Shown here: positions 4,879-31,273 of the stretch, one piece after another
Layout: each line of letters begins with the position of its first letter
How positions within the stretch are numbered: position 1 is the stretch's first letter
The notes under the pieces: generated by a model
What the model saw: only the letters and a program-made list of their open reading frames with translations
Databases searched by the model: none
What the model was told of the DNA's origin: nothing
Assembly (NCBI RefSeq): GCF_001679925.1
Contig: NZ_LYUZ01000078.1
Location: 27,983-66,737, forward strand
DNA: 38,755 nucleotides
Source of the DNA: Leisingera sp. JC1
GTDB taxonomy: Bacteria; Pseudomonadota; Alphaproteobacteria; Rhodobacterales; Rhodobacteraceae
Direction: 5' to 3'
Made by a program: the position numbers and the translations under genes

Positions 4879-6087
4879 TTAGTGTTGCACGAGAGTCGAG
4901 GTGTTTGACACCGCCTGGCGCTGCTTGAAGCTGGAGAAGGCAACCACGGCTGCGAAGCCCAGCAGAACCGCTGCGATCATCGCCCAGCCAACGGAAGCGA
5001 TCATCAGGCCGGAGCTGAAGGAGGCGAGCGCCGCGCCAAGCGCGATGCCGGTGTCGTTGATGCCCTGGAACAGGGATTTTTCGCTGTCCAGAAGCTCAGA
5101 GTTCAGCAGCGTCGTTGCGCCGACGAACCCGAAGTTCCATCCCAGCCCCAGCAGGATCAGGGACACGTAGAAATGGACCAGTTCAATCCCGGCAAGGGCG
5201 GTCAGGCCGGACAGGGCCAGCAGGACAGCGCCGGTGACGACGATGGCATTGGCGCCAAAGCGCGTAATCAAGGAGCCGGTGAAGAAGCTGGGGGCAAACA
5301 TGGCGACCACGTGCCAGCGGATGACATCGCCGGCCTGAACGTCGCTGAATCCGCAGCCGACCATCGCCAGCGGGGTGGGCGTCATCAGCAGCATCATGCC
5401 GGCAAAGCTGCCGACCCCGCACAGCATCGCCCACAGCAGCCGCGGGCGGTGCCAGAGCGGCGCGGTCCTGCCGGGGGAGGTGTCCTTGGCGGCCTTGGTC
5501 TGCGGTGGTGCGAAGCGGGCGGCCGCAATTGGCAGTATGCCGGCCAGGGCGATGGCGGAGACCGCCAGATAGGCGCCCGCCAGCGGGACCGGGGCCAGCG
5601 CATCCTTGAACAGGCGGAAAACCTCGGGCGCCAGCAGTGCGGCGACCAGCCCGGAGCCAAGCGTGAGGGAGATCGCCTTGGCCTGGTGCGGGGCGTCAAC
5701 CAGCTCTGCCGCGGCAAAGCGGAACAGCCCGAAGCTGACAACTGCAGCGCCAAGCAGCGCATGGGCAAGGCACAGCAGCACAAACAGCCCGTTGATTAGG
5801 CTGTAGGCCGCAAGCGCCCCGCCCAGCACCGCAAACAGCGCGGCCAGCAGGAACCCGGCCTTGCGTCCGCGCGCGCCCATCAGCATGGACATTGGCGTTG
5901 CGGTGAACAGCCCGGCCAGCAGCTGGACTGACACGGGCAGCGTGGCCAGGCCTTCGCCCGGCGACAGCTGCAGGCCTGCCAGCCCGCCAAGAATGATGAG
6001 CATCGGCATCGGAATCGTCAGAACTGTCGCGCCAAGAAGCACGAGCAGGAAATTTGGGCTTTTGATCAGCAGCATGGGTCCGTCCAA
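4879..6087 (-). CDS. MFS transporter
   Basis: A 402-residue, strongly hydrophobic protein with about 12 predicted membrane segments. The loop after helix 2 reads TPMSMLMGARGRKAG, the place of the MFS motif A (GxxxDRxGRRk), here with GARGRKAG. A cytoplasmic loop rich in Lys and Pro (about residues 190-210, around APPQTKAAKDTSPG) separates the two six-helix halves. The second half contains a ...LGLGWNFGFVGATTLL... helix typical of MFS exporters annotated near 'YfkF/DHA1-like' proteins. The start could also be ATG at 6075 (MLLIKSPNF), which looks equally good. It is the first gene of a two-gene operon and diverges from the GlxA-type regulator, which may control it. The substrate is unknown. Confidence 0.88.
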   Translation of the reverse strand: MDGPMLLIKSPNFLLVLLGATVLTIPMPMLIILGGLAGLQLSPGEGLATLPVSVQLLAGLFTATPMSMLMGARGRKAGFLLAALFAVLGGALAAYSLINGLFVLLCLAHALLGAAVVSFGLFRFAAAELVDAPHQAKAISLTLGSGLVAALLAPEVFRLFKDALAPVPLAGAYLAVSAIALAGILPIAAARFAPPQTKAAKDTSPGRTAPLWHRPRLLWAMLCGVGSFAGMMLLMTPTPLAMVGCGFSDVQAGDVIRWHVVAMFAPSFFTGSLITRFGANAIVVTGAVLLALSGLTALAGIELVHFYVSLILLGLGWNFGFVGATTLLNSELLDSEKSLFQGINDTGIALGAALASFSSGLMIASVGWAMIAAVLLGFAAVVAFSSFKQRQAVSNTSTLVQH

Positions 6088-6315
6088 AGGTTTACATGCA
6101 GAGGGGATACAGCTTCAGGCACCGGATTTTATGTCAACGGCACGGTGATTCCGGCCAGACCGCGGACGGCCGGCGCCAGCGGAGCCCTGCAACCTGTGGA
6201 AAGTTTGGAAAAATCCTCTCTACTGATGGTAAAGTTGTGCTACGGCGCCGCAAAAGAGACGTTACGCGACGTCACAATTTGCTATGCGGGACCAAAGGCA
6301 AGCCGAAAGGGGGGC
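6088..6315. promoter_or_regulatory. Divergent intergenic region between MFS gene and GlxA-type regulator
   Basis: About 230 bp separate the divergent starts. A spaced repeat of GACGT (6258-6262 and 6268-6273, reading GACGT...GACGTC) lies about 45 bp ahead of the regulator start and is a possible operator. No convincing sigma-70 hexamer pair could be fixed. A Shine-Dalgarno-like run of A and G (AAAGGGGGG, 6307-6314) supports the start of the regulator at 6316. Confidence 0.35.
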
Positions 6316-7287
6316 ATGCGGATGGCGGCTCAGGAACGCAGGAAGATCAAAGTGGTCATGTTTTCCGATTCCCAGGTGCTGGATATTTCCGGCCCGGTGA
6401 CGGTTTTTGAAGGCACAAACAAGCTGCTGCCGCCGGAGCTGGGGTATGATGTCTCGCTGATCTCGCCGGGTGGCGGGCCGGTTGCCACCAATGGCTGTAT
6501 CGCGATCCAGGCGCATGGCAGCGTCGAAGCCGAGGATCTGCAAGGGGTGGACACGCTGCTGATCCCGGGCGGCAGCAAGGGCACGCCGCAGGCGATGCGG
6601 GATCCGGCCTTGCGGCGACTGGTTCAGCGCGCCAACGGCGAGAAGATCCGCATCATGTCCATATGCACCGGAGCCTTTGTGCTGGCGGAGGCGGGTATCC
6701 TGGACAACCGCAAATGCACGACGCATTGGGCCGAAATCGGCAACTTCCGGCGCCTGTTTCCCGGAATTACCGTCCTGACCGACGTGATTTACCACACTGA
6801 GGACAACATATGGACCTCGGCTGGGGTGGCCACTGGGATTGATATGGCGCTGGCCGTTGTCGCAGAGGATTTTGGACCGGACATTGCCCAGCAAGTGGCC
6901 CGGAACCTTGTTCTTTACCTAGCGCGGCCGGGTCATCTGGAGCAGATCTCGGAGTTCCTGCGCAATGTGCCGACACTTGAGGAAAAGCTCAACGAGCTGG
7001 TCATGTACATCCGCACCAACCCGGCCGCCAATCATGACGTGAACCGCATGGCGGAACGCTGCAACATGAGCACCCGCAGCTTCACGCGGAAGTTCAAGTC
7101 CGCCCTGGGCAAGACCCCGGCGGCGATGGTACGGGAAATCAGAGCCGCGCGGGCGGCGTTTTACTTGAAGAATACCGATTACAGCCAGAAGCGGATCGCA
7201 GCGCTGGCGGGCTTTTCATCGGTTGATGTCATGCGCCAGTGCATGAAGGCGGTTCAAAAGGACGAGGCGGACGCTGACTCCGGCTGA
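6316..7287 (+). CDS. GlxA-family transcriptional regulator (DJ-1/PfpI domain + AraC HTH)
   Basis: A 323-residue regulator. I take ATG 6316 (MRMAAQERRKIKVVMF) as the start because a strong ribosome site precedes it and the DJ-1/PfpI domain begins right after; the open frame extends 57 codons upstream without homology. Residues about 10-180 form the DJ-1/PfpI domain (FSDSQVLDISGPVTVFE; nucleophile-elbow-like SICTGAFVLAEAG with Cys; then CTTHWAEIGNFR). Residues about 220-320 form the AraC HTH (MAERCNMSTRSFTRKFKSAL and a second helix-turn-helix ending AALAGFSSVDVMRQCMK). Members sense small molecules, often betaine or choline-related (GbdR, CdhR), and activate neighbouring genes. It diverges from the MFS operon and precedes the biosynthetic genes, so either could be its target. 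Confidence 0.93.
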   Translation: MRMAAQERRKIKVVMFSDSQVLDISGPVTVFEGTNKLLPPELGYDVSLISPGGGPVATNGCIAIQAHGSVEAEDLQGVDTLLIPGGSKGTPQAMRDPALRRLVQRANGEKIRIMSICTGAFVLAEAGILDNRKCTTHWAEIGNFRRLFPGITVLTDVIYHTEDNIWTSAGVATGIDMALAVVAEDFGPDIAQQVARNLVLYLARPGHLEQISEFLRNVPTLEEKLNELVMYIRTNPAANHDVNRMAERCNMSTRSFTRKFKSALGKTPAAMVREIRAARAAFYLKNTDYSQKRIAALAGFSSVDVMRQCMKAVQKDEADADSG

Positions 7288-7620
7288 AAAATGCGGCAGC
7301 TGTCACGCTGCCACAAGTTGGTCCGGAATTGGACTGCCTGTGAGGGCGGCCTGGGGGATCATTTCCAAAGCTAACGCGCCCGGAAGGCAATGGCGGCCAA
7401 AGTTACCGCCAAATCGGCCAATACAGGAGACCTGCTGCCCGCGGGCTGGGAGATTCCCTTTCCCTGCCGCGAAAGGTGCTAATCCCTTAGTTGATTAACT
7501 GGTCAATGAATCTGCCAAAAGTGTCTTGAACTATCGTGAACTTGGCCGGAATTCCCAAAAGCTCCTGCCTAGGAAAACGGAGAGTTTATCACGTTTTTGC
7601 AATTTTGGAGTGCAGGGGAA
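7288..7620 (+). promoter_or_regulatory. Upstream region of the biosynthetic operon
   Basis: This gene-free stretch of about 330 bp holds a 6-bp-stem hairpin just after the regulator (GGCAGC 7295-7300 with GCTGCC 7307-7312, no U-tract). It also holds a 16-bp spaced palindrome TTGATTAACTGGTCAA (7491-7506) that is a plausible operator for the downstream aminotransferase operon. An A/T-rich segment around 7575-7610 leads into the ribosome site AGGGGAA before ATG 7621. The rest shows nothing recognisable. Confidence 0.4.
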
Positions 7621-8910
7621 ATGATCGGAAACAGGGTAATGGAATCAAATGTGCGCAGCTACAACAGGGCGTTCGGGAGTACATTTGACCGGGCGGTAGG
7701 CGCTGAGATGTTCGACGAAACCGGCGGCAGGCATCTGGATTTTCTCGCAGGCTGCGGGTCTCTGAATTACGGGCATAATCACCCGGTGCTCAAGGCTGCG
7801 CTGATGGATTATGTGGCCCGTGACGGGTTGTGCATGTCGCTTGATTTGAACTCTACCGCGCGGTCGGTGTTCCTTGAGCGGTTTGAGCGCATTGTCCTGA
7901 CGCCGCGCGGGCTGAATTATCTGGTGCAGTTTCCTGGCCCGACCGGGGCAAACTGTGTGGAGGCGGCAATCAAGCTGGCCCGCAAGGCGACCGGGCGCAG
8001 CAATGTCATCAGTTTTACCAACGGGTTTCATGGCTGTTCGCTGGGGGCGCTGTCGCTGACCGGAAGCAGCCATCACCGCTCCGGTTCGGCGGCCTTGCTG
8101 CAGCAGGTGAGCCGGATGCCCTATGAAGGCTATCTTGGTAACGGGCTGGACACCGCGGATTATATTGACCGGCTGCTGGACGACCCAAGCAGCGGCATTG
8201 ATGCGCCTGCGGCCTTTGTGGTGGAGCTGGTGCAGGGCGAGGGCGGTCTGCAAACCGCATCCGCAACCTGGGTCCGGCGCCTGCAGGAGATTGCGCGCAA
8301 GCACGGGGCGCTGCTGATTGTGGATGACATCCAGGCGGGATGCGGCAGGACAGGCACCTTCTTCTCGTTCGAGCCGCTGGGCATCGTTCCGGATATAGTC
8401 TGCCTGGCCAAGGCGCTGTCCGGCTACGGGCTGCCGATGTCGCTGCTGCTGCTGAAGCCGGAACTGGATTGCTGGGAGCCGGGCGAGCACAACGGCACCT
8501 TCCGCGGCAACAGCCACGCCTTTGTAACCGCTGCTGCCGCGCTGGAGCATTTCTGGGCTGATCCTGAGTTCGCACTGGCCCTGGCGGACCGCTGCGCAGC
8601 GATGCAGCGCCACTGCGCACAGCTGGCGGACTGTTTTGGCCTGCGTGTCAAAGGGCGCGGCATGATGATGGGACTGGAATTCGCCGATGGCAGCCAGGCG
8701 GCGCCCGTGCAGGCGGATTGCGTCCGCCGGGGCCTGATTATCGAACGCTGCGGGCCGCATGACGAAGTGCTGAAGTTCCTGCCGCCACTGACGCTCAGAA
8801 CGGAACAATTGGACGAAGGGTTTGCGATCGTCCGGCAGGCGCTGAGTGCGGTGCTGGGGGATAGGGATTGTACCGCTCAGCCTCATGTGCCGGAGCTGGA
8901 ACCGGCATAA
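7621..8910 (+). CDS. Diaminobutyrate--2-oxoglutarate-type aminotransferase (EctB/Dat-like, class III)
   Basis: A 429-residue PLP enzyme. Start ATG 7621 is preferred to an upstream TTG (7597) because AGGGGAA precedes it and because MIGNRVMESNVRSYNRAF aligns with the beginning of EctB-like proteins (ESxVRSYxR). Class-III features in order are FLAGCGSLNYGHNHP, PGPTGANCVEAAIKLARKATGR, FHGCSLGALSLTGS, the cofactor Asp in LLIVDDIQAGCGRTG, and the Schiff-base Lys in CLAKALSGYGLPMSLLL. The family makes L-2,4-diaminobutyrate from aspartate semialdehyde and an amino donor (glutamate), as in ectoine, rhizobactin and related pathways. No ectA or ectC lies nearby; instead an amine N-hydroxylase follows 63 bp downstream, as in hydroxamate siderophore loci. 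The product could be diaminobutyrate or a near relative. Confidence 0.9.
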   Translation: MIGNRVMESNVRSYNRAFGSTFDRAVGAEMFDETGGRHLDFLAGCGSLNYGHNHPVLKAALMDYVARDGLCMSLDLNSTARSVFLERFERIVLTPRGLNYLVQFPGPTGANCVEAAIKLARKATGRSNVISFTNGFHGCSLGALSLTGSSHHRSGSAALLQQVSRMPYEGYLGNGLDTADYIDRLLDDPSSGIDAPAAFVVELVQGEGGLQTASATWVRRLQEIARKHGALLIVDDIQAGCGRTGTFFSFEPLGIVPDIVCLAKALSGYGLPMSLLLLKPELDCWEPGEHNGTFRGNSHAFVTAAAALEHFWADPEFALALADRCAAMQRHCAQLADCFGLRVKGRGMMMGLEFADGSQAAPVQADCVRRGLIIERCGPHDEVLKFLPPLTLRTEQLDEGFAIVRQALSAVLGDRDCTAQPHVPELEPA

Positions 8911-8973
8911 CCCCTTTATTTTTTTGATCTTTTTCAACGTAAGGCAGGGCGGACCTGCTTTGCCCAGACAGAA

Positions 8974-10323
8974 ATGAGTCCTGAAATGGCAAAAACTTTT
9001 GATGTCGCCGGTATCGGCTTTGGCCCTGCAAATATCGCCCTGGCAGCGCTGTTTGACGAAGAAGGCCTGTATCCGAATGCAGTGTTCCTGGATAAGTCGC
9101 ACAATCCGGTCTGGCAGCAGGAAATGCTGTTTGAAAACGCGCTGGATATTCATTCGAATATTCAGAACATCCCGCACCGGGATCTAGCCACTCTGCGGTC
9201 GCCGCGCAGCAAATACACGTTCATGAATTACCTGCACAGCACCGGAAAGCTGCTGAGCCATCTGAACATGGATCTGCTGATGCCGATGCGGCCGGACTTT
9301 GCCGCCTATGTCGGCTGGGTTGCGGAGCAGCTGTCCGGCAATTTGCAGACCGGATGCGGGGTGGAGCGGATCACCATGCTGGACGAGGCGCACCAGCATG
9401 TCTACCGGATCGACATGCAATCGGGCGACCCCGTCTTTGCCCGCCATGTCGTGGTGGGCACCGGCCGGGAGCCCTATATCCCGCCTGCCTTTGACAAGCT
9501 GACTGCCTCTGGGCGGGTGTTCCACCTCAGCCGCTACAACAGCGCGCATAAGGCGCTGCTGAACAAGGGCGCCCGGAAGTTCGCTGTTGTCGGCAGCAGC
9601 CAAAGCGCGGTGGAAATTCTGTTGCATCTGTCCAAACATGAGCCGCGCCTGGAACTGCACAGCTTCATACGCCGCTTTGCCTTCCCGCTGAAGGACACCA
9701 ATCCGTTCATGAGCGAGATCTACTTCCCGTCCTTCACCGAAATGTATTTTGAGGCCGGTAAGGAGCTGAAGGGGCGGATCGACCGGGATGTCTACCGCAC
9801 CAATTACGGCGCCTGCGACATGGATGTGCTCGAGGAGCTGTACCGCCAGCTGTACTATGACCGGATGCACGGGGTGAACCGGATCACCATCAACCGGCTG
9901 ACCGATATTCTTGCCGCCGAAGAGGCTGCCGAAGGGGTCCGTCTGACAGTCCGCGACGGCGAGACGGGCGAAACCCGCAGCGAAGTGTTTGACGGGGTGG
10001 TGCTGGCAACCGGGTTTCGCAATATCGGCAGCGACAGCCGGTCGGTACGGGTGCCGGGCATTCTGGAAGGGGTGCAGGCGCAGCTGGCGCTGGACGAGGA
10101 AGGCTGCGTTCAGGTGGACCGCTCCTACCGCGCGCAGCTGCAGCCCAAATATGCCAGCGCCGGCGCACTGGTGCTGAACGGGTTGTGCGAAGCGACCCAC
10201 GGCATGGGTGATGCGGGTTCCCTATCGCTGCTGGCGCCCAGGGCGCAGACCATCGCCAACGCGCTGCTGCAGTTGGATCACGATTCCCATGCCGGTCTGG
10301 CGAGCGGCGTTGCGGCCCAATAG
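8974..10323 (+). CDS. L-lysine/L-ornithine/diamine N-hydroxylase family flavoenzyme (IucD/PvdA/RhbE-like)
   Basis: A 449-residue flavin-dependent N-monooxygenase of the SidA/IucD/PvdA family, near the usual 430-460 length. The FAD site is DVAGIGFGPANIALAAL. The NADPH site is FAVVGSSQSAVEILLHL, with the family's GxGxSA variant. The conserved D-x-x-PF-x-x-E-x-F block appears as DTNPFMSEIYFPSF, and the C-terminal ATG motif as VLATGFRN. Such enzymes use FAD, NADPH and O2 to hydroxylate a terminal primary amine of lysine, ornithine, or diamines derived from diaminobutyrate. Given the upstream aminotransferase, diaminobutyrate or a derivative is the likely substrate (inference). An alternative start is ATG 8986 (MAKTFDVAG). 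It lies 18 bp before the CGS-like gene in the same operon. Confidence 0.92.
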   Translation: MSPEMAKTFDVAGIGFGPANIALAALFDEEGLYPNAVFLDKSHNPVWQQEMLFENALDIHSNIQNIPHRDLATLRSPRSKYTFMNYLHSTGKLLSHLNMDLLMPMRPDFAAYVGWVAEQLSGNLQTGCGVERITMLDEAHQHVYRIDMQSGDPVFARHVVVGTGREPYIPPAFDKLTASGRVFHLSRYNSAHKALLNKGARKFAVVGSSQSAVEILLHLSKHEPRLELHSFIRRFAFPLKDTNPFMSEIYFPSFTEMYFEAGKELKGRIDRDVYRTNYGACDMDVLEELYRQLYYDRMHGVNRITINRLTDILAAEEAAEGVRLTVRDGETGETRSEVFDGVVLATGFRNIGSDSRSVRVPGILEGVQAQLALDEEGCVQVDRSYRAQLQPKYASAGALVLNGLCEATHGMGDAGSLSLLAPRAQTIANALLQLDHDSHAGLASGVAAQ

Positions 10324-10341
10324 GCGGAAGGGTCTTTCAAC

Positions 10342-11649
10342 ATGCGTTTTGATACAATCGCGGTGCGCGGCGGCTATTGCGAGCCGTCGGCGCTGGCAAA
10401 CGAAGGTGCGATCTGCGAGCCGGCCTATCTGTCGCCTGCCCAGCATTTCGCCTCTTCCGAACACATGCGGCGGGCGCTGAGCGGGGAGGCGGACGGCTGG
10501 GTTTACACCCGGATCGACAATCCGACCGTGCGCCAGCTGGAGACCACAATCGCGGCGCTTGAGGCCTATGGCGGCGGGTTCAGCGCCACCGCCACGGTGT
10601 TCTCCTCTGGCATGGCGGCGCTGTTCATGGCGGCCACCGCGCTGGTTGCAGATGATCCGGCCCGGCCCAGGGTGAACATTGTGCTGCCCGCGGCCTGCTA
10701 TGGCGGCAGCTTCATGCTGTTCCGGGAACGGTTCCAGCAGGACCGAGGGATTGAGCTGCGCTGGATCCAGGACACGCTGGATCTGGGCGAATGGGAGCGC
10801 GCGATTGACGGCAACACCCGGTTCGCGCTGTGCGAGGTGCCGTGCAACCCGCTGCTGCGGATGACTGACATCCCCGCGCTAGCGCGCATCACCGCGGCCC
10901 AGGGCGTGCCGCTGATGGTGGATGCCACCCTGTCCAGCCCGGCGGTGATGCGGCCGCTAGTCCTGGGGGCCGATATCGTGGTGCATTCGGTCAGCAAGTC
11001 CATGTCGGCGAGCGGCCTGAGCATTGCCGGTGCCGTGGTGTCGCGGCCCCAAATCTGCTGCCCGCACCCGCGGCAGGAGATGCGCGACGACTTTGCCGGG
11101 TACCTCAAGCGCGGGCCGCAGCGCGACACCGGCGTCATCCTCAGCCCGTTCAACGCGCTGCAAAGCCTTGCGGATCTGCGCAGCCTGCGCAGCCGGATGC
11201 AGACCATGGGGCGTTCAGCCCGGCGGCTGGCAGAGGTGCTGGCGGCGCATCCGGCGGTCGCAGAGACCTTCTATCCCGGGCTGCCGGACATGCCAGGCCA
11301 TGAGATCGCCCGGCGTGACATGGTGCTGGTGGACAGCGAATTGGAGTCGGGCGGGCAGGAGAACTGCTTTGGCTATCTGATGTCGGTGCGGATGCGCGGT
11401 GGCATTCCGGCGGCCCGGGCCTTTCTTGACGGGCTGCAGATCTTCTGGCGGGCAAACGATCTGGGACGCATCAAGAGCACTGCAACCATCCCCTCGATTT
11501 CGACCCATTCGCAGCTCAGCGAGGCGGAAAAGAAACTGGGCGGCATCCCCGGCGATCTGGTGCGTCTCAGTGTCGGCTGCGAGCATGAGGATGACATCAT
11601 TGCCGATGCCGCCCAGGCGCTGGACCAAGTTCTCAAGGTGGCAGCATGA
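10342..11649 (+). CDS. Cystathionine gamma-synthase/O-acetylhomoserine sulfhydrylase-like PLP enzyme
   Basis: A 435-residue Cys/Met-metabolism PLP-enzyme. The YTRIDNPTVRQLE block (normally YSRxxNPT) is clear, followed by FSSGMAALF, the cofactor-aspartate region PLMVDATLSSP and the Schiff-base Lys in VHSVSKSMSASG. The last third shows STHSQLSE (normally SxxTHxxL) and VRLSVGCEHEDDI, both standard. The family performs gamma- or beta-replacement or elimination on activated homoserine, cysteine or related amino acids. The usual TKYxxGHSD motif after the lysine is changed to SKSMSASGLSIA, so it is not an ordinary housekeeping MetB or MetZ. It overlaps the KASIII-like gene by 4 bp. In this setting it might attach a homoserine-derived C4 unit to the hydroxylated amine; this is inference. 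Confidence 0.88.
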   Translation: MRFDTIAVRGGYCEPSALANEGAICEPAYLSPAQHFASSEHMRRALSGEADGWVYTRIDNPTVRQLETTIAALEAYGGGFSATATVFSSGMAALFMAATALVADDPARPRVNIVLPAACYGGSFMLFRERFQQDRGIELRWIQDTLDLGEWERAIDGNTRFALCEVPCNPLLRMTDIPALARITAAQGVPLMVDATLSSPAVMRPLVLGADIVVHSVSKSMSASGLSIAGAVVSRPQICCPHPRQEMRDDFAGYLKRGPQRDTGVILSPFNALQSLADLRSLRSRMQTMGRSARRLAEVLAAHPAVAETFYPGLPDMPGHEIARRDMVLVDSELESGGQENCFGYLMSVRMRGGIPAARAFLDGLQIFWRANDLGRIKSTATIPSISTHSQLSEAEKKLGGIPGDLVRLSVGCEHEDDIIADAAQALDQVLKVAA

Positions 11650-12641
11650 CAGCGGACGTTTATGTCTCTGGCGTGAGCGCCTGGCTGCCGGACACCGTTT
11701 GCACGGTGGAGGAGGCCATCTCGCAGGGCCGCTATAATGCGGCCCGGGCGACCACGGACGGGTTCACCTCAGTCTGCATCGAACAGCATCTGAGCCCGCC
11801 GGAGATGGCGCTGCGGGCTGCGCGGCCGCTGCTGCGGCCCGAGGACGCAAGCGCCATCAATTCGCTGTACCTCTGCAGCATCCACCGACATGGCCACAAG
11901 CTGTTGTGGCCGCCGGCAAGCTATCTGCACCGGGCGCTGGAACTGGACAGCCGCACCCGTGTCATGTCCTTGAACCAGGGGTGCAATGGCGGCTTCACCG
12001 CGGTTTCCCTAGCCTATGATCTGATCCTGGCCGGGCTGCCGGGAGACCAACTGGTTCTGGGCGCGGACCGGTTTTCGGGTTCGGCTTTCGACCGGTTCAA
12101 TTCGGATCTTGGGACGCTCTACGGCGACGCGGCATTTGCGTTGCGGCTGAGTGCTGATCCTGGTCCCTACCGAATTATCAGCCTTGAACTGGAGTCGGAA
12201 CCGGCGCTTGAGCCGATGTACCGGGCCGCCAGGCCAGAGCCGGAGGGGCCGGGTGACCACGATGTCAAATCCGCCAAGAAAGCGTATCTGGAGGCGTATG
12301 GCCGGGACGGGTTCAACGCGCTGTTCATCCCGGCCTTGCAGCGGTTACGGCGCAGGCTGCTGGACAGCGCAGACCTTGAATCGCGTCCGGCGGACTATGT
12401 GATCTATCCCAATGTCGGCGCCGGATTGAGCGCCCAGTTGTACGCAGGCGCCTTTGCGAATCTGGCGCGGCAGGATCTGTGGGGCTTCGGCCGCAGCATC
12501 GGGCATACGGGGACCGCTGACCAGTTTCTGGGCCTATGGGAGCTCGACCGGAGGCAAGCGCTTCGCAAGCATGACCGTGTGCTGATGATTGGAGCTGGAA
12601 ACGGTCTTGGACTTGCCGGCATGCTCGTGGAAAAAATCTAG
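11646..12641 (+). CDS. KASIII-like acyltransferase with altered catalytic triad
   Basis: A 331-residue thiolase-fold protein of the 3-oxoacyl-ACP synthase III class. The nucleophile is Cys113 in LNQGCNGGFTAVSLAYD, which aligns with KASIII Cys112. The halves are typical: GADRFSG and FGDAAFA-like LYGDAAFALRL in the first, GRSIGHTGTADQFLG in the second. Canonical KASIII has His in PHQAN and Asn in GNTSAAS. Here the corresponding segments read YPNVGA (no His, residues 254-259) and GHTGTA (His287 where Asn is expected). This implies an enzyme that transfers an acyl group without the usual decarboxylative condensation, as ChlB- or CerJ-like acyltransferases do, though their residues differ from these. 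It starts in the preceding stop (ATGA) and is the last gene of the biosynthetic operon. Confidence 0.85.
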   Translation: MTADVYVSGVSAWLPDTVCTVEEAISQGRYNAARATTDGFTSVCIEQHLSPPEMALRAARPLLRPEDASAINSLYLCSIHRHGHKLLWPPASYLHRALELDSRTRVMSLNQGCNGGFTAVSLAYDLILAGLPGDQLVLGADRFSGSAFDRFNSDLGTLYGDAAFALRLSADPGPYRIISLELESEPALEPMYRAARPEPEGPGDHDVKSAKKAYLEAYGRDGFNALFIPALQRLRRRLLDSADLESRPADYVIYPNVGAGLSAQLYAGAFANLARQDLWGFGRSIGHTGTADQFLGLWELDRRQALRKHDRVLMIGAGNGLGLAGMLVEKI

Positions 12642-12873
12642 CAGACCGCTGAAGAAGTCGGGTCTCGACGTGGCTTGAGGAACATGATGCCCTGCTAGCG
12701 TGGGTCTGGTTCTTAAGGACGCTGCTTTTGCCGATGCAGATTGGTCGGCTTCACCTACTTGGAGGGGCTGAGCAGGCCACGTCAAACTTAACGGAAAAAA
12801 TATTTCCGAAAAAATATTGACGGCATGATGCGTGGTGGGTAGAAAACTTCCAACCACAGGCAGAGGCAGCAGT
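12642..12873. other. Intergenic region with AT-rich tandem motif
   Basis: After the KASIII-like stop there are about 150 bp with no recognised element. Two copies of GAAAAAATATT (12794-12804 and 12808-12818) follow, 14 bp apart. The first copy also forms the near-palindrome CGGAAAAAATATTTCCG (12792-12808). This AT-rich island in GC-rich DNA is a likely promoter or operator for the gene at 12874. A ribosome site of the GGCAGAGG type precedes ATG 12874. Confidence 0.4.
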
Positions 12874-13500
12874 ATGGCAACGGTCAATCAAATGAGAGCA
12901 GGGCTTGCGCGTCTCTTCGGCTGCAGTGAAATGCGGCTGAAAGCCCTGAGCCAGAGCCTTGCAGCCACCGGACTCCGAACTGAAGGCGGGGCTGGGCGTG
13001 GCGCCGCCCAAATGAATGGCCGGGATGTAGGTCTTCACGCAGTTGCACTGGGATATGACCTGGCTACCAAAGATGCAGCTGAAGTTCTGGCGCCGATTGA
13101 CGCAATGCCGCTTCAAGAAGGGCTATGGCTGCATCGCAACACGGTCAGATGGACCTTCGAACGCGGGATGCTTGGAAACAGCAAACTTCTTACCGCACTC
13201 TCAAAGGCATACAAAGGCCCGGCAACCGATTTGCCCGTCCCCTATGACTTTGGAGAGTTCATCGGAATGTGGGTCGATGGAATTTTTGAGCCGCAGCTTG
13301 GAACCTATTTGGACGGCCGTGCCGAACTGACAATTCACCGCACGGGGCCAAAGGCGCATTTCCGGTTCGAACGCCAAGGAGACCTGATGGAGCTGACTTA
13401 TGCCGCTGCAGACTGCAAAGCGGCTGAAAAACCGAAGTGGGATCAGCTGCTGGTCATCCGCGAAGAGCTGTTTCAAGAGCTGGCCACGATAGTCCGCTGA
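12874..13500 (+). CDS. Hypothetical protein, unknown family
   Basis: A 208-residue soluble protein that I do not recognise. ATG 12874 (MATVNQMRAGLARLFG) is chosen over an in-frame ATG at 12832 because of the purine-rich sequence just before it. The first 60 residues are basic and helical (LARLFGCSEMRLKALSQSLA), then comes a stretch with AVALGYDLATKDAAEVLAPI. The second half is mixed alpha/beta with LTIHRTGPKAHFRFERQGD and DQLLVIREELFQELATIV at the end. The helical N-terminus could be a DNA-binding or adaptor domain, as in phage-type hypothetical proteins. It lies between the biosynthetic operon and the candidate left end of the transposon, and could be host sequence, an older insertion or transposon cargo. 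Confidence 0.6.
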   Translation: MATVNQMRAGLARLFGCSEMRLKALSQSLAATGLRTEGGAGRGAAQMNGRDVGLHAVALGYDLATKDAAEVLAPIDAMPLQEGLWLHRNTVRWTFERGMLGNSKLLTALSKAYKGPATDLPVPYDFGEFIGMWVDGIFEPQLGTYLDGRAELTIHRTGPKAHFRFERQGDLMELTYAAADCKAAEKPKWDQLLVIREELFQELATIVR

Positions 13501-14231: not shown

Positions 14232-14909
14232 ATGTCCTATCCTTTTCAGCAGGAAGGCATCCGGCTTCCTGAACCCAGCCTTGCCAACCGCGATGTCGCG
14301 GCGGCCTCCAAGGGGCACTTCACCGGCCACGCCGTCCTGGGCGATGGTCCTGGACGCATTGTCCAACTCGAAAGCCATCACGAGCTGCAGTTCTGCCTTT
14401 GCCTGGCCGCCCGGCCGGAAACCGGCGAGATCTACGAGCAGGTTAGCTTTGAATGGCACGATGCGGACGGCGAGCTCCACCCTCACTACTTCGACTTCGT
14501 GGTGGTGCAGACCGATGGAGCGGTTATCGCCTATTCCGTGCGGCCAACGTACGGCGTGAGCGACGAGTTCTTTGAGGAGATGTGCCGGATCTCGGATCAG
14601 GCGCGGAAAGCAGGCTTCGTTGCCGATGTCCGCCTGCTGACGGAAGAGGACCTGGACCCGGTCGAGCTGTTCAATGCCGAACTGCTTCATTCCGTTCGCG
14701 AGGAGGATCCGGAGGCCGATGAAGCGGCGCGGAAAGCCGTTCGGGGCATGCAGGGCATCGAAACTCTGGAGGTTCTCAGGGACCGTGCCGGCTGCGGCGC
14801 CATGGGCTTCCGGGCTCTGATCCGGCTGATCCGGTCCCGCCATCTCCAGCTCGTCAGCCACGAGCGCATTTCCCCGAAATCCCAGGTCTTCAAAAGGGAG
14901 CAGGTCTGA
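14232..14909 (+). CDS. tnsA: TnsA-like transposon endonuclease with degenerate catalytic motif
   Basis: A 225-residue protein in the TnsA position. TnsA is a restriction-endonuclease-fold protein that cuts the 5' strand at transposon ends so the element is excised cleanly. Seen here: Glu47 in QLESHHELQF (the place of Tn7 Glu63), the strand GEIYEQVSFEW, and Asp88 in HYFDFVVVQTDG (the place of Asp114). The strand that should carry the (E/Q)xK motif reads AYSVRP (residues 100-105): Ser102 and Arg104 replace the acidic or Gln residue and the catalytic Lys. The C-terminus (residues 208-225) is repeated in the next ORF. The ribosome site before ATG 14232 is weak, which would fit control by the upstream RNA structure. 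The stop overlaps the next ATG by 1 bp. Confidence 0.75.
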   Translation: MSYPFQQEGIRLPEPSLANRDVAAASKGHFTGHAVLGDGPGRIVQLESHHELQFCLCLAARPETGEIYEQVSFEWHDADGELHPHYFDFVVVQTDGAVIAYSVRPTYGVSDEFFEEMCRISDQARKAGFVADVRLLTEEDLDPVELFNAELLHSVREEDPEADEAARKAVRGMQGIETLEVLRDRAGCGAMGFRALIRLIRSRHLQLVSHERISPKSQVFKREQV

Positions 14910-15265
14910 TGAAGCTGTCCTACGACTACCACAATGCAGCCGCACACGCGGCGTTCCAGCCGGTTCTGAACGTGCTGGAGCTGCACCATCCGCACCGGCG
15001 GATTGAGATCGATGACTGGAAAATCGATCTGACGACGCTGATGCATTCCAGCGGCCGCATCGACTTTTTCAATGAAGAGGAATGGCTCCTGTTCGGAGTG
15101 ACCACCGGACCTGAAACCGGTGAGGTCTGCGAACAGGCCGGCTTCGAATGGCACGATGAGGACGGCGTTCTCCAGCACGTCAGCCACGAGCATATCTCCC
15201 CGAAATCTCAGGTCCTCAGGAAGGAGCAGGTCTGATGGGAATGATGGAGTTGTCTTACGACTATC
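14844..15265 (+). repeat. Diverged direct repeat flanking the mosaic ORF
   Basis: Positions 14844-14930 and 15170-15265 are related. Both carry the last 18 or so codons of tnsA (VSHE..ISPKSQV..), the string GAGCAGGTCTGATG at the stop/start junction, and the first codons of a tnsB-like gene (..LSYDY). The copies differ at many third positions and by a short insertion, so the duplication is old or came by recombination with a related element. Confidence 0.85.
14909..15235 (+). CDS. Mosaic ORF assembled from tnsB and tnsA fragments
   Basis: A 108-codon intact ORF placed between tnsA and tnsB, overlapping both by 1 bp (TGATG junctions). Its residues 1-10 (MKLSYDYHNA) match the TnsB N-terminus (MELSYDYRKT). 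Residues about 11-63 match TnsB 275-330, that is, the beginning of the catalytic domain with the first Asp (RIEIDDWKIDLTTLMHSSG versus RVEIDEWEIDLMTLMHSSG). Residues about 67-90 match TnsA 61-84 (PETGEVCEQAGFEWHDEDG), and residues 91-108 match the TnsA C-terminus 208-225. It thus looks like the collapsed remnant of a second, diverged tnsA-tnsB pair reduced by deletions that all kept frame. It has neither a complete nuclease nor a complete DDE domain. It may be inert, or a small protein that can dock to TnsA or TnsB partners. Confidence 0.8.
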   Translation: MKLSYDYHNAAAHAAFQPVLNVLELHHPHRRIEIDDWKIDLTTLMHSSGRIDFFNEEEWLLFGVTTGPETGEVCEQAGFEWHDEDGVLQHVSHEHISPKSQVLRKEQV

Positions 15266-17394
15266 GCAAAACCCGCATCGCAATTGGTGCCTTCGACCGC
15301 ATTAACGTCAACGAGGTGTCTTACAGCTTCCTCTTCGAGAATGAAGCTGGGAAAACGCTGAAAATGGAGGATGGAACAGGCCGGGCCTATCAGTTCTCGC
15401 ATGAGGAACTGAGCCGCCTGTCGTCGCTGGGCCGTCTTCGCATTGAGCCGGATTTCTTCCATCCGGAAAAGGCGGCCCGGCAGCAGCAGTCCAGCACCAG
15501 CCTTCTGTCCGCTTTGCCGTTGACCCATAACGCCCGGGTCGCAAAACGCAGCGCCTATGTCGAGGCCTTCCTCGAAATGGAGCGTGAGGGTAAGATCAAC
15601 CGCACCGATGCTGCGATCAAGGCCAACACCGAAGTTCTGATCGGCAAGGCAACGCAATTTGCGGAAAACCTCAATCCCTTGGGCGTAGCCAAACCTGGAA
15701 AATCGGCGGACATTTCGATTCCGCCAAAGCCCCGGACGCTGCGAAACTGGGTCAAGGCTGCTGAACTTGATGGCCAGGCGGGCTTGCTGGACGCGATGCA
15801 TTTGCGCGGGAACCGCAACCGGGTTCTTGGACCGGAAGAAGTCGGTCTGCTGATGAAGGAAGTGCGCGGCTACATGAGCCTTGAGAGGCCAACCATCAAG
15901 ACGATCCACGAAAATGTTCAGATCGCCTTTGAGGACCGGAATGCCGAGCGGAAAGAACGCGGGCTGCCTTCCCTCAAAGTGCCCAGCCGGGAAACCACAC
16001 GCCGTGCGATCCGGGCGCTCGACCCGTTTGCGGTGATCACGGCCCGCTACGGCGAAGCGGCTGCCCGCAAAAAGTTCAAGCCGGTTCTGAACGGGCTCAA
16101 CCTGACCCGCCCGCTTCAGCGGGTCGAGATCGATGAATGGGAAATCGATCTGATGACGCTGATGCATTCCAGCGGGCTCATCGACCTGTTCACTGAAGAG
16201 GAACGCCTCCAGCTCGGCCTGGACAAGACCACGAAGCGCTGGACGCTGACGGTGGCGATCTGCTGCACCACCCGCTGCATCGTGGGGATGGTCATTTCCA
16301 CGGCGCCGAAAGCGCGGGCCGCGGTACAGGTGCTCCAGATGGTCGTGTCCAACAAAGGCCAATGGGCTGATCTGGTTGGCGCACTCGGTCATTGGGACAT
16401 GTATGGTATTCCGGAACTGATCGTCACGGACTGCGGAGTTGCGTTTAAGTCGCAGGCCTTCCGCTTCGCTTGTGCCGATCTTGGGATCACCAAGGAACTG
16501 GCAATCGCGGGCTGCCCGGAAGTCCGCGGGACCATTGAGCGTGTGTTCAACACTGTCGCCTTGGACCTGCTGCCCCGCCTGTCCGGGCGCACGTTTTCCG
16601 ACGTCGTCAGCAAGGGGGACGCAAAGCCAGAAGAGCGCGCAGCTCTGACCTTCGACGACCTGGCCTTCGTTCTGGTGCGCTGGGTTGTAGACATCTACCA
16701 CAACACTCCGCATCGCGGTTTGGACGGCAAGACGCCCGCCGAGACCTGGCGCCGTTTGATGGGGAAATGGGGCGTTCGGCCGTCTCCGGACATGCGCCGC
16801 AGCCGGCTCGTCTTCGGCCACCGGATGACACGCGTTCTTAGCAAAGAAGGCTTGACCGTTCTTGGCGTCCGCTACCATTCGGAACGGCTGGCCGACTGGA
16901 TGCTGCGCAAGGACAAATGCGATGTCGACGTGCGCTGGCACCCCAAGGACATCGGCGCCATCGAAGTGCGGCTTGGCAGCGACTGGTTCACTGTTCCCGC
17001 CATCGACCATGAGCTTGATGGCGTGCCCGCGCAGATCTGGCTGTCGGCCACCCGGGACGTGCGTTCTAGGAACCCCAAGGCAAAGCGGATCAACACCGAG
17101 GTTGTTCAGCAGGCGATCAAAGCGATCTCCGAACGCAACGCCGAGGCCATGGCACTTGCCAATCTGGTGGTCGAGGACTGGTCGCCGGAGCGCATTGCGC
17201 GGGAGGAAAAACGGATCTTCCGGGGCGTCCGGTTCGGCAAGCCCAAACAGCTGCAGAAGGCCAAGGACGGCATCGGCAGCTCTTTCCCGGCACCAGAAGC
17301 AGAAACCAGCAGAACCGAGAAAACCGCCAGCAAGAAACCGGCCTCCGCACGCCGTAAATCCAACGCCACCGACTGGACCATCGAGGACAACTGA
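15235..17394 (+). CDS. tnsB: TnsB/TniA-family DDE transposase
   Basis: A 719-residue transposase of the Tn7 TnsB/Tn5053 TniA class, which binds the transposon ends and performs 3'-end cleavage and strand transfer. The N-terminal third holds HTH-type end-binding segments (around RNWVKAAELDGQAGLLD and LKVPSRETTRRAIRALDPF). The catalytic rve core follows: Asp300 (or Asp305) in RVEIDEWEIDL, Asp399 in ELIVTDCGVAF and Glu435 in VRGTIERVF, with exactly 35 residues between the last two. After the core come VVDIYHNTPHRGLDGKTPAETW, standard for this class, and a beta-barrel-like domain. The C-terminal tail is Lys/Ser/Glu-rich, as expected for contact with TnsC. The start at 15235 overlaps the mosaic ORF; ATG 15241 or 15244 would also serve. 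Confidence 0.95.
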   Translation: MGMMELSYDYRKTRIAIGAFDRINVNEVSYSFLFENEAGKTLKMEDGTGRAYQFSHEELSRLSSLGRLRIEPDFFHPEKAARQQQSSTSLLSALPLTHNARVAKRSAYVEAFLEMEREGKINRTDAAIKANTEVLIGKATQFAENLNPLGVAKPGKSADISIPPKPRTLRNWVKAAELDGQAGLLDAMHLRGNRNRVLGPEEVGLLMKEVRGYMSLERPTIKTIHENVQIAFEDRNAERKERGLPSLKVPSRETTRRAIRALDPFAVITARYGEAAARKKFKPVLNGLNLTRPLQRVEIDEWEIDLMTLMHSSGLIDLFTEEERLQLGLDKTTKRWTLTVAICCTTRCIVGMVISTAPKARAAVQVLQMVVSNKGQWADLVGALGHWDMYGIPELIVTDCGVAFKSQAFRFACADLGITKELAIAGCPEVRGTIERVFNTVALDLLPRLSGRTFSDVVSKGDAKPEERAALTFDDLAFVLVRWVVDIYHNTPHRGLDGKTPAETWRRLMGKWGVRPSPDMRRSRLVFGHRMTRVLSKEGLTVLGVRYHSERLADWMLRKDKCDVDVRWHPKDIGAIEVRLGSDWFTVPAIDHELDGVPAQIWLSATRDVRSRNPKAKRINTEVVQQAIKAISERNAEAMALANLVVEDWSPERIAREEKRIFRGVRFGKPKQLQKAKDGIGSSFPAPEAETSRTEKTASKKPASARRKSNATDWTIEDN

Positions 17395-17396
17395 TC

Positions 17397-18374
17397 ATGA
17401 CTGAGCAAGCAAAAAAAATCGCCGACACGCTGGAAACCCTGCGCAACCTCCATGTTGGATCTCCCAGGGACGCGGAATTTGCGTCCCACCTCGACCGGCT
17501 CCTGAAACGCGACCCCTCGGGCAACCTGCTGCCCGAGGCCTTGCGCTTCACCTCCACCGGCGAGACGCGCGGCATCCTGGTGATCGACGGACCCGGCGGC
17601 GGTAAATCCACTTTGGTGGACCGGGGCCTGTCCCGGCACCCTGTGCTCTCCCAGATGCCGGAGGGGCGCCCTCTCTACCTGGATACGGTGGTACCGAGCC
17701 CCGCGACCCTGAAGAGCGTGACGCAGGAGCTTTTGACCCGCAGCGGCTACCCCGTGAAGTCCGGCCGCAGCGAGGTCTGGAGCCAGCTCCATGTGTTTCG
17801 TGAACGGCTCCACTTGCTCGGGATCGCCGTCCTGTGGATTGACGAGGCGCACGATCTGTTCTGTGCCGACCGGAACCTGATCCTCAGGGCGGTGAAGACG
17901 CTGATGCAGGGGGAGCACCCGGTGATCGTGATCCTGTCCGGTACCGAAAGGCTCCGGGAAATCATCCGCACCGACGCGCAGGTCAAGCGCCGGTTTTCCA
18001 CCATCAACCTGAAACCGGTCGCTGTCCATACTGACAAAGAGCAGTTCGCCGCCCTGATCGAGCAATACTGCGCCCGCGCGGAACTGGAACCGCCTCAGCA
18101 GGAGGATCTGGTCGACAGGCTGTTCCATGCCTCCCGCTACAGGTTCGGGCGCTGCATCGAGACTATCAATGCGGCAATCGAGCAGGCGCTGAACCATGGT
18201 GAGGCGGCTCTGGATATCTGGCATTTCTCGGAAGCCTGGGCGTTCGACGAGGGATGCCCGCTCGACCAGAATGTGTTCGAGGTTCCGGAATGGTGGACGA
18301 TCGACCCGGATGCGTCCGATGAGGAGGAAGAGCCCAGGAAACCGGTCAAACGCAAGCGGAAGCAGAGGGCATGA
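17397..18374 (+). CDS. tnsC: TnsC/TniB-family AAA+ ATPase
   Basis: A 325-residue ATPase that links target recognition (TniQ) to the transposase. Walker A is IDGPGGGKSTL (Lys70), Walker B is AVLWIDEAHDLF (Asp149, Glu150), and a sensor-1-like Ser/Thr lies in VIVILSGTERLREII. QVKRRFSTINLKPV carries the family's Arg-Arg-Phe after sensor 1. Length and order fit TniB/TnsC proteins of Tn5053 and small Tn7-like elements rather than the larger Tn7 TnsC. The final 30 residues are acidic then basic (DASDEEEEPRKPVKRKRK), a probable partner-binding tail. It starts 2 bp after tnsB and overlaps tniQ by 4 bp. Confidence 0.95.
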   Translation: MTEQAKKIADTLETLRNLHVGSPRDAEFASHLDRLLKRDPSGNLLPEALRFTSTGETRGILVIDGPGGGKSTLVDRGLSRHPVLSQMPEGRPLYLDTVVPSPATLKSVTQELLTRSGYPVKSGRSEVWSQLHVFRERLHLLGIAVLWIDEAHDLFCADRNLILRAVKTLMQGEHPVIVILSGTERLREIIRTDAQVKRRFSTINLKPVAVHTDKEQFAALIEQYCARAELEPPQQEDLVDRLFHASRYRFGRCIETINAAIEQALNHGEAALDIWHFSEAWAFDEGCPLDQNVFEVPEWWTIDPDASDEEEEPRKPVKRKRKQRA

Positions 18375-30066: not shown

Positions 30067-30095
30067 AAGGCCGGGATCATTGTGTTTCCGGCCTT
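30067..30095 (+). terminator. Hairpin after the TPP-enzyme gene
   Basis: A perfect 8-bp stem AAGGCCGG (30067-30074) with CCGGCCTT (30088-30095), 13-nt loop, is followed by GTCTCTTTC. It probably causes partial termination before the cystathionine-lyase-like gene, whose own ribosome site (AGGAAAGG, 30142-30149) lies further down. Confidence 0.7.
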
Positions 30096-30157
30096 GTCTC
30101 TTTCACTTGGCGCCCGCTATGAATTTGCGAAACCCGCAGTCAGGAAAGGCGCCCCAA

Positions 30158-31273
30158 ATGGACACCCCTACCGCTCCCAAACCCGGCGCCATGCTGCACC
30201 TGCGCGGCAACACGCTGTCCGAGGGCGATCCGGTGGCACTGCCGCTGACCCAAAGCTCCATGTACCACCTGCCGGGCGATTGGACCGGCGGCCCCAGCTA
30301 TGGCCGGGTGGACAATGCCACCTGGGAGCACCTGGAGCATGTGCTGGCTTATCTGGAGCACGCGCCTGCGCTGGCGTTTCCGTCAGGCATGGCGGCGATC
30401 TCAGCAGCGCTGTTTGCGACCCTGAAAGCAGGGTCAAAGCTGCTGATCCCCTCGGACGGGTATTACGTCACCCGACGCCTGAGCGAGCGGTTCCTGCAAG
30501 ACCTTGGCGTCGAGGTGCACCAGCGACCGACCACCGGTTTTGCTGAGGGCGGATTCGATGGCTTTGACGTTGTCTTTGCGGAAACACCTTCGAATCCCGG
30601 ACTGGACCTCTGCGACCTGCGTGCGGTTGCGGACGCGGTGCATGCGGCGGGCGGGCTGCTGATCGTTGATAACACCACCATGACCCCGCTGGGCCAGCGG
30701 CCGCTGGAACTGGGGGCCGATGTGGTCGTCGCCTCCGACACCAAGGCGCCGGGCGGCCATTCCGACGTGCTGATGGGGCATCTGGCGACCCGCAATGCGG
30801 ATGTGCTGCAGGCCGCGCGCGAATGGCGCCAGTTCGGCGGCGGCATCCCCGGCCCGCAGGAGGCCTGGCTGGCGCACCGCGGGCTGGAAACTTTGGACGT
30901 GCGCTTCGACCGCATGTGCAGCACCGCTGAAGTGCTGGCCGAACGGCTGGCAGCGCATCCGCTGGTGCAGGCGATCCGCTTTCCGGGGCTGAAATCCGAC
31001 CCCTCGTTTGAGCTGGCGAAACAGCAGATGGCGCGGTTTGGATTTCTGATTTCCATCACTCTGGACGGCGCGGAACAAGCGGATGCCTTCATCAACACCT
31101 GCCCGCTGATCCGCTCCGCAACCTCGTTCGGCGGTGTGCATACCTCAGCTGAGCGCCGCGCCCGCTGGGGCGATGCCGTGGCGCCGGGGTTTATCCGCAT
31201 CTCGGTTGGCACCGAACCGGCAGAGGAATTGTGGAGCGCGATGGCCGCGTCTCTGGATGCTCTGCTGGAATAG
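30158..31273 (+). CDS. Cystathionine gamma-lyase/synthase-like PLP enzyme
   Basis: A 371-residue enzyme of the Cys/Met-metabolism family. Start ATG 30158 (MDTPTAPKPGAM) follows AGGAAAGG; the frame extends upstream without homology. Visible marks are the cofactor-binding YGRVDNATWEHLE (normally YSRxxNPT), FPSGMAAISAALFA, LLIVDNTTMTPLGQRPLELGA, the Schiff-base lysine in ASDTKAPGGHSDVLMGH, and a C-terminal TSFGGVHTSAERR and IRISVG. Compared with common members the N-P-T is N-A-T. It is about 20 residues shorter than the 385-400 usual in the family. The gene lies downstream of the TPP enzyme in the same direction. A sulfur or gamma-substituted amino acid as substrate is likely; the product could be a 2-oxo acid for the TPP enzyme. 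Confidence 0.88.
   Translation: MDTPTAPKPGAMLHLRGNTLSEGDPVALPLTQSSMYHLPGDWTGGPSYGRVDNATWEHLEHVLAYLEHAPALAFPSGMAAISAALFATLKAGSKLLIPSDGYYVTRRLSERFLQDLGVEVHQRPTTGFAEGGFDGFDVVFAETPSNPGLDLCDLRAVADAVHAAGGLLIVDNTTMTPLGQRPLELGADVVVASDTKAPGGHSDVLMGHLATRNADVLQAAREWRQFGGGIPGPQEAWLAHRGLETLDVRFDRMCSTAEVLAERLAAHPLVQAIRFPGLKSDPSFELAKQQMARFGFLISITLDGAEQADAFINTCPLIRSATSFGGVHTSAERRARWGDAVAPGFIRISVGTEPAEELWSAMAASLDALLE

What the first reader, a model, noticed from the sequence alone, without database searches (positions are those of the whole stretch)
7621..12641. Small undescribed-looking pathway: diaminobutyrate aminotransferase, amine N-hydroxylase, CGS-like and KASIII-like enzymes
The four genes form one tight operon. 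The first two are the opening steps of rhizobactin- or hydroxamate-type siderophores, but IucA/IucC synthetases, decarboxylase and NRPS are absent. In their place are a PLP enzyme able to do gamma-replacement chemistry and a KASIII-type acyltransferase. A product built from N-hydroxy-diaminobutyrate, a C4 amino-acid unit and an acyl chain is imaginable: a metallophore, signal or toxin.
Basis: partly seen in the sequence, partly recalled or inferred. Interest (0 to 1): 0.8.

Follow-up and report, generated by a model that had tools for sequence, protein, structure and literature searches.

The report
Undescribed N-hydroxy-diaminobutyrate amino-acid operon
Four neighbouring bacterial genes look like a small, travelling assembly line that makes, modifies and exports an unusual nitrogen-oxygen amino acid, probably a signal or weapon rather than an iron carrier; the final product is unknown.

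Summary
Four intact, co-directional genes at 7639-12641 encode an EctB-like diaminobutyrate aminotransferase (DAT), a SidA/IucD/PvdA-type N-hydroxylase (NMO), a cystathionine-gamma-synthase-like PLP enzyme (CGS) and a KASIII-like acyltransferase of the CerJ/DpsC/ChlB3 group (KAS). A DJ-1/AraC regulator and an MFS gene stand beside them.

The set is a real unit. It is intact in 3 of 21 genomes of the genus and decayed in a fourth. It is on an Agrobacterium vitis plasmid and, rearranged, in Streptomyces regalis. NMO, CGS and KAS distances mirror each other (r 0.95-0.97), and all four genes are under purifying selection (dN/dS 0.07-0.11). Distribution is sparse and scattered. No characterised cluster turned up in the papers searched.

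The siderophore idea gains nothing: no synthetase, receptor or iron box was found in the window. In two Rhizobiaceae the set is followed by genes of FVG (formylaminooxyvinylglycine) core families, which hints at an exported amino-acid antimetabolite.

Most likely pathway: aspartate semialdehyde, then DAB, then N4-hydroxy-DAB, which KAS acylates and CGS remodels at the gamma carbon. Step one rests on good homology, step two on family and partner gene; the last two, their order and the product are inference. Novelty: new variant of a known kind.

The parts
4879..6087 (-). MFS transporter, divergent; probable exporter of the product
   Evidence: PF07690 above cut-off; syntenic in Leisingera L036 and L038 at 93-96% identity; an MFS gene not recognisably similar to it adjoins the set in A. 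vitis, and an MFS gene adjoins it in S. regalis
6241..7287 (+). DJ-1/PfpI + AraC-type regulator (GlxA/FtrA-like); longest frame starts 6145
   Evidence: PF01965 + PF12833; the regulator upstream of the A. vitis set is 36% identical
7639..8910 (+). DAT: L-2,4-diaminobutyrate--2-oxoglutarate aminotransferase, EctB-like (alternative ATG 7621)
   Evidence: TIGR02407 572.6 bits, cut-off 552.2; best PDB matches are diaminobutyrate transaminases
8974..10323 (+). NMO: flavin-dependent amine N-hydroxylase (SidA/IucD/PvdA type)
   Evidence: PF13434 266 bits; nearest PDB entries are an L-ornithine 5-monooxygenase, MbtG, an L-lysine 6-monooxygenase and KtzI
10342..11649 (+). CGS: gamma-family fold-type-I PLP enzyme, cystathionine-gamma-synthase/OAH-sulfhydrylase-like; Lys219, Tyr120, Asp194, Arg408 kept, Ser of MGL replaced by Asp373
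   Evidence: PF01053; alignments
11646..12641 (+). KAS: KASIII-like acyltransferase of the CerJ/DpsC/ChlB3 group, Cys113, His287, Asp292
   Evidence: AlphaFold2 model pLDDT 90.7 and fold comparison

Best explanation
The operon is a self-contained, NRPS-free pathway to a small exported non-proteinogenic amino acid with an N-O function, most likely an antimetabolite or signal. DAT makes L-2,4-diaminobutyrate (DAB) from aspartate semialdehyde (shown to family level). NMO hydroxylates the side-chain nitrogen to N4-hydroxy-DAB (inferred from family and partner gene). KAS loads an acyl group from a CoA or ACP thioester on Cys113 and passes it to a heteroatom, most simply the hydroxylamine, giving a hydroxamate (chemistry class inferred from fold; acceptor not shown). 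CGS makes or breaks the bond at the gamma carbon through a PLP-bound vinylglycine intermediate, so that the N-O fragment is moved, exchanged or joined to a second C4 unit (inferred). An MFS protein exports the product and a DJ-1/AraC regulator controls the genes (both inferred).
For: Equivalog-level EctB match. A DAT-NMO pair without a CGS or KAS match on a Vibrio halioticoli plasmid stretch, so the pair is a module of its own. In NMO, Ser247 marks the operon-type clade: 57 of the 61 closest of 120 listed homologues, the other 4 Asn. KAS lies structurally within the CerJ/DpsC/ChlB3/NatS acyltransferase group. CGS keeps its catalytic residues but has Asp373 where MGL has Ser and OAH sulfhydrylase Asn. 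Co-inheritance r 0.948-0.974 over 14 sets, 0 of 2000 permutations as high. Of 19 KAS relatives on contigs of 8 kb or more, 15 match a contig length listed for NMO or CGS. An MFS gene adjoins the set in Leisingera, A. vitis and S. regalis. FVG-core families follow the set in A. vitis and, on a contig that begins inside CGS, in a Rhizobiaceae MAG.
Against: No substrate of NMO, CGS or KAS is shown; NMO could take ornithine or another diamine. Of the FVG-type neighbours only a weakly similar LysE gene (24-26%) lies in the window or in L036 and L038; heme-oxygenase-like, carbamoyltransferase and SGNH matches are absent there. A search of the window's own genome with the A. vitis heme-oxygenase-like protein found nothing, without a positive control. 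The same FVG-type unit stands without the four-gene set in an Acinetobacter stretch, so in Rhizobiaceae it may be a separate neighbouring operon. The co-inheritance test does not remove shared species ancestry, and three of its 14 sets are Leisingera.
Confidence: 0.55

Rival explanations
1. Aminocarboxypropyl transfer: KAS acylates homoserine (or CGS borrows O-acylhomoserine from methionine synthesis), and CGS replaces that ester by N4-hydroxy-DAB, giving an N-hydroxy amine that bears two C4 amino-acid arms.
For: CGS, OAH-sulfhydrylase and MGL are its nearest solved relatives; KAS overlaps CGS by 4 bp, as a substrate-activating partner might.
Against: KAS is of another family than the homoserine acyltransferases MetA/MetX, and primary metabolism usually supplies O-acylhomoserine, which makes a dedicated acyltransferase needless (both recalled); no substrate shown.
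Confidence: 0.2
2. Hydroxamate siderophore or other metallophore: KAS acylates N-hydroxy-DAB to a hydroxamate that chelates iron or another metal.
For: DAT and NMO families occur in siderophore pathways (recalled; PDB names include siderophore hydroxylases); the MFS gene could be an exporter.
Against: No IucA/IucC, NRPS, carrier protein or TonB receptor among the window frames scanned; no Fur or Irr consensus. A single hydroxamate chelates iron poorly (recalled). Leisingera sp. JC1 is reported to have asbAB siderophore genes (PMC5014874, passages).
Confidence: 0.12
3. Catabolic or detoxifying operon: NMO and CGS break DAB or a plant/algal N-O amino acid down, as canavanine gamma-lyase releases hydroxyguanidine from canavanine.
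For: Canavanine gamma-lyase, a PLP-dependent enzyme, yields homoserine and hydroxyguanidine from canavanine (PMC10018355, passages).
Against: EctB-type enzymes work in the DAB-forming direction (recalled); an acyltransferase, an MFS gene and scattered presence fit synthesis better.
Confidence: 0.08
4. Four genes with separate housekeeping roles, placed together by accident.
For: Each family is widespread singly (for NMO, CGS and DAT on plasmids).
Against: Conserved linkage in distant genera and matching distances; purifying selection.
Confidence: 0.05

Closest known systems
gvg cluster of 4-formylaminooxyvinylglycine (FVG), Pseudomonas fluorescens WH6 (PMC8064604 two sections and passages; PMC8067088 passages and table)
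   Same: NRPS-free, exported amino acid with an N-O group; class III aminotransferase. In A. vitis the four-gene set and MFS are followed by genes named or matching as heme-oxygenase-like, LysE, carbamoyltransferase and SGNH hydrolase, the kinds listed for gvgC, gvgE, gvgF and gvgA
   Different: gvg as tabulated in PMC8067088 has no N-hydroxylase, CGS-like or KASIII gene; no gvgA-, gvgC- or gvgF-type match in the window, L036 or L038.
Rhizobactin/hydroxamate NIS siderophore clusters (recalled)
   Same: DAB aminotransferase plus amine N-hydroxylase
   Different: No decarboxylase, IucA/IucC-type synthetase or receptor among the window frames scanned
D-cycloserine pathway, DcsE/DcsD (recalled)
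   Same: Acyl activation plus a PLP replacement enzyme joining an N-O nucleophile to an amino-acid carbon
   Different: Beta-replacement of O-acetylserine, different PLP family, hydroxyurea nucleophile
CerJ, DpsC, ChlB3, NatS acyltransferases
   Same: Fold, Cys or Ser nucleophile and GH-G--D motif
   Different: 28-30% identity (24% to NatS); those serve polyketide, sugar or aromatic acceptors (recalled); here the acceptor is probably an amino acid
Canavanine gamma-lyase (PMC10018355, passages)
   Same: PLP gamma-chemistry on an N-O-C4 amino acid

Membership tests
EctB-type DAB aminotransferase | Score above the NCBIfam equivalog cut-off TIGR02407 | tested here: met
   572.6 against 552.2 bits
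EctB-type DAB aminotransferase | Serves ectoine synthesis (ectA/ectC nearby) | tested here: inconclusive
   No ectoine synthase found in own genome, but none of the 14 control genomes rang either; none among the neighbouring frames scanned
SidA/IucD/PvdA N-hydroxylase | PF13434 over its whole length | tested here: met
   266.4 bits, profile 1-338 of 339
SidA/IucD/PvdA N-hydroxylase | Hydroxylates DAB | not testable with these tools
   Needs an enzyme assay
Gamma-family Cys/Met PLP enzymes | PF01053 and catalytic Lys/Tyr/Asp/Arg | tested here: met
   273.8 bits; Lys219, Tyr120, Asp194, Arg408 in the query and all 120 listed homologues
Cystathionine gamma-synthase / OAH sulfhydrylase (named NCBIfam models) | Score above a curated cut-off | tested here: not met
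   25 best of 43 families shown, all below cut-off; best 249.9 bits against 495.1
CerJ/DpsC-type KASIII acyltransferase | Closer in fold to CerJ/DpsC/ChlB3 than to FabH/OleA | tested here: met
CerJ/DpsC-type KASIII acyltransferase | Nucleophile plus His and Asp of the GH-G--D motif | tested here: met
   Cys113, His287, Asp292 invariant in the 24 aligned
FVG (gvg) cluster | Core gvgA, gvgC, gvgF (gvgB too small to test), with gvgH and gvgI for FVG itself | tested here: not met
   No match of the A. vitis heme-oxygenase-like, carbamoyltransferase or SGNH proteins in the window or L036, L038; the same queries do find the unit in L043 and L044. In A. vitis these families do follow the set
Hydroxamate NIS siderophore cluster | IucA/IucC synthetase or NRPS, and receptor | tested here: not met
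   Not found among the window frames scanned

The most novel reading that the evidence does not exclude
A new N-O amino-acid logic: KAS turns N4-hydroxy-DAB into a hydroxamate, and the CGS-like enzyme then eliminates that hydroxamate at the gamma carbon and adds it back through oxygen, rearranging N-hydroxy-DAB into an N-acyl canaline (O-aminohomoserine). In Rhizobiaceae the FVG-type neighbours would oxidise this to an aminooxyvinylglycine. This would be a microbial route to aminooxy amino acids and a new reaction for the gamma-family PLP enzymes.
Probability: 0.12. Interest if true: 0.85.

Novelty: new variant of a known kind. Interest (0 to 1): 0.55.

Why it matters
If right, it is an undescribed, horizontally moving natural-product cassette in marine roseobacters, plant-associated rhizobia and actinomycetes. 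It would pair a DAB N-hydroxylase with an uncharacterised PLP gamma-enzyme clade and a KASIII acyltransferase acting on an amino acid. It would give a handle on how the N-O bond of aminooxy amino acids can arise; PMC8067088 says that, apart from GvgI, the placement of the FVG enzymes in the pathway is unknown (passages).

Tried and rejected
Siderophore reading: rejected as the lead for lack of synthetase, receptor and iron box. Ectoine reading: search of own genome for ectoine synthase was empty but its controls were silent, so it is inconclusive. Leisingera sp. S132 looked at first like a second N-O cluster, with an NMO-cupin pair and a MetRS-like frame near KAS. Only KAS and a broken piece of CGS remain there, and its NMO is a different protein, 35% identical. 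NMO Arg69 in place of the Lys of PvdA first seemed special to DAB, but it is in all 120 listed homologues, including two named 'ornithine monooxygenase', so it is no substrate marker; Ser247 does track the operon-type clade, with four Asn among the closest 61. The other loci with KAS relatives of 27-42% identity (L008-L027) gave no NMO or CGS match; neighbours of L008 and L010 were scanned and show other enzymes; L027 has a DAT match of 53% near its 28% KAS relative and was not followed. Samples of the class, family and phylum found KAS only in the own genome (1 of 385, 1 of 394, 1 of 398), but at most 5 first-look candidates per genome were scored in the rows printed. The search around G037 held one genome only. 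Rfam scan of 6900-12900 empty. In one search I used the first 34 of 55 KAS rows (the rest are 37% or less identical), the first 61 of 120 NMO rows and all 120 CGS rows; one of the 19 matches (6526) may be chance, because that CGS is from an Anaerolineae MAG. Literature: no paper on this gene set seen in searches; one search returned 570 papers, with the 15 listed on N4-hydroxycytidine and similar, and tested little. All 10 searches used.
Full report
Observation. Pfam assigns PF00202, PF13434, PF01053 and PF08545/PF08541 above cut-off. Upstream are a DJ-1/AraC regulator and a divergent MFS gene. Downstream, transposition genes run from about 14.2 to 20.2 kb: a TnsA-like frame (22.8 bits, below its cut-off of 110), an rve/Mu-type transposase, TniB and TniQ. 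Against two other Leisingera copies, dN/dS is 0.069-0.114 for the four genes, with no internal stop in those copies.

Where it lies. The window is part of G000, a 5.19-Mb assembly. KAS is present in 4 of 21 genomes of the genus, the own one included. All four genes are intact in three of these (G000, G006, G013; G013 is the SS27 genome, also fetched as L004). In the fourth (G007, a plasmid) KAS and a broken piece of CGS remain. Samples of the family, class and phylum gave KAS in 1 of 394, 1 of 385 and 1 of 398 genomes, each time the own genome, with limited candidate scoring.

The set elsewhere. One scan of the species-genome collection gave 24 loci, many of them distant relatives. The closer ones are Leisingera SS27 (all four), Streptomyces regalis (NMO-CGS-KAS, an IS110-type transposase frame, then DAT), Puniceibacterium antarcticum (CGS-KAS at a contig end) and a Rhizobiaceae MAG (CGS-KAS at a contig end). 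An A. vitis plasmid carries regulator, DAT, NMO, CGS, KAS, MFS in that order. In the protein searches I compared longest-contig lengths of the 34 closest KAS relatives, 61 closest NMO and 120 CGS rows. Of the 34, 19 share a length with a listed NMO or CGS and 9 with both; on contigs of 8 kb or more it is 15 of 19. These include Colwellia, Pseudomonas sp. nanlin1 and Salinarimonas. For 14 sets the distance matrices correlate at 0.948-0.974, and 0 of 2000 permutations reached that. This shows joint inheritance, though shared species ancestry contributes.

DAT and NMO. DAT passes the EctB equivalog cut-off, and its best solved matches are DAB transaminases. NMO is nearest to solved ornithine and lysine hydroxylases, among them MbtG and KtzI. 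A Vibrio halioticoli plasmid has NMO (44%) next to DAT (in two frames in that record) with a flavin monooxygenase, a BtrH-like protein and an MFS gene, and no CGS or KAS match in the 17 kb read. So DAT-NMO is a module that probably yields N4-hydroxy-DAB. This is inference; the Lys-to-Arg change against PvdA is in all 120 listed homologues and cannot be used as proof.

CGS. It is a gamma-family PLP enzyme, below the cut-offs of the 25 NCBIfam models shown. Of 1344 plasmid records with a match, 40 are listed: A. vitis at 50.5%, the others 34-37%; one short 90-95% match, presumably the S132 fragment, is not in that list. In the large protein search most of the rows after the operon-type ones are 50-57% identical, unnamed, or called OAH-sulfhydrylase-like or from Chloroflexi and Anaerolineae MAGs. 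Catalytic Lys219, Tyr120, Asp194 and Arg408 are kept in all 120 listed homologues. At the place of Ser in MGL and Asn in OAH sulfhydrylase it has Asp373; 114 of the 120 also have Asp, the others Asn (5) or Met (1). So this Asp marks the wider clade, not the operon alone. I read it as an altered substrate pocket; which substrate is unknown.

Link to FVG. In A. vitis the four genes and MFS are followed, same strand, by heme-oxygenase-like, LysE, carbamoyltransferase and SGNH genes (annotation; Pfam confirms the heme-oxygenase-like and carbamoyltransferase proteins, the SGNH protein has no Pfam match, LysE was not scanned). The Rhizobiaceae MAG keeps CGS-KAS, then MFS and the first three of these at 70-85% identity, and its contig then ends. 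gvgC, gvgE, gvgF and gvgA of the FVG cluster are of these kinds (PMC8067088 passages and table). A Streptomyces homologue, 29% identical to the A. vitis SGNH protein, is annotated 'Inducer of phenazine A', and PMC8067088 names iopA and iopB as the P. chlororaphis counterparts of gvgA and gvgC. Against the link: the FVG-type unit stands without the four-gene set in an Acinetobacter stretch and with an aminotransferase match in Photobacterium. In the window only a LysE gene at 761-1447 is weakly similar (24%), and no homologue of the A. vitis heme-oxygenase-like protein was found in the window's genome (no positive control).

Mechanism. I favour aspartate semialdehyde to DAB (DAT), N4-hydroxylation (NMO), acylation (KAS) and gamma-carbon remodelling (CGS), then export. 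Step 1 is supported to family level. Step 2 is likely. Steps 3 and 4 and their order are inference. The bold version is a hydroxamate shift to N-acyl canaline. Rivals are aminocarboxypropyl transfer to N-hydroxy-DAB, a metallophore, or catabolism.

Verdict. A real, conserved, apparently undescribed cluster of moderate interest.

Noticed in passing
window 14232-20221: Tn7-like transposition genes (weak TnsA-like match, rve/Mu-type transposase, TniB, TniQ) downstream of the operon; the Leisingera loci L036 and L004 have other frames downstream.
   Followed up: partly
window 14909-15235: Small frame between the tnsA-like and transposase genes is a mosaic of diverged copies: 171 nt 77% like part of the transposase gene and 76 and 69 nt 79-87% like parts of the tnsA-like gene.
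   Followed up: partly
L037 6852-11662 / L041 7197-11698: On the Leisingera sp. S132 plasmid the operon remnant lies near a different NMO, a cupin gene and a frame with a methionyl-tRNA-synthetase-like match, parts that recall hydrazine-forming enzymes (recalled), with PAAR and baseplate genes between.
   Followed up: no
L003 7965-14215: Vibrio halioticoli plasmid: NMO, DAT (two frames), flavin monooxygenase, BtrH-like protein and MFS gene, perhaps another N-hydroxy-DAB pathway.
   Followed up: no
L027 10001-13320: Saccharopolyspora shandongensis: a distant KAS relative (28%) with a DAT match (53%) about 1 kb further, no NMO or CGS match.
   Followed up: no
window 30080-31273: A second Cys/Met-type PLP gene in the window (30% like CGS), near TPP-enzyme, TRAP-transporter and GMC-oxidoreductase genes; probably a separate catabolic region.
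   Followed up: no
window 12832-13500: 222-aa frame after KAS without any Pfam or NCBIfam match.
   Followed up: no
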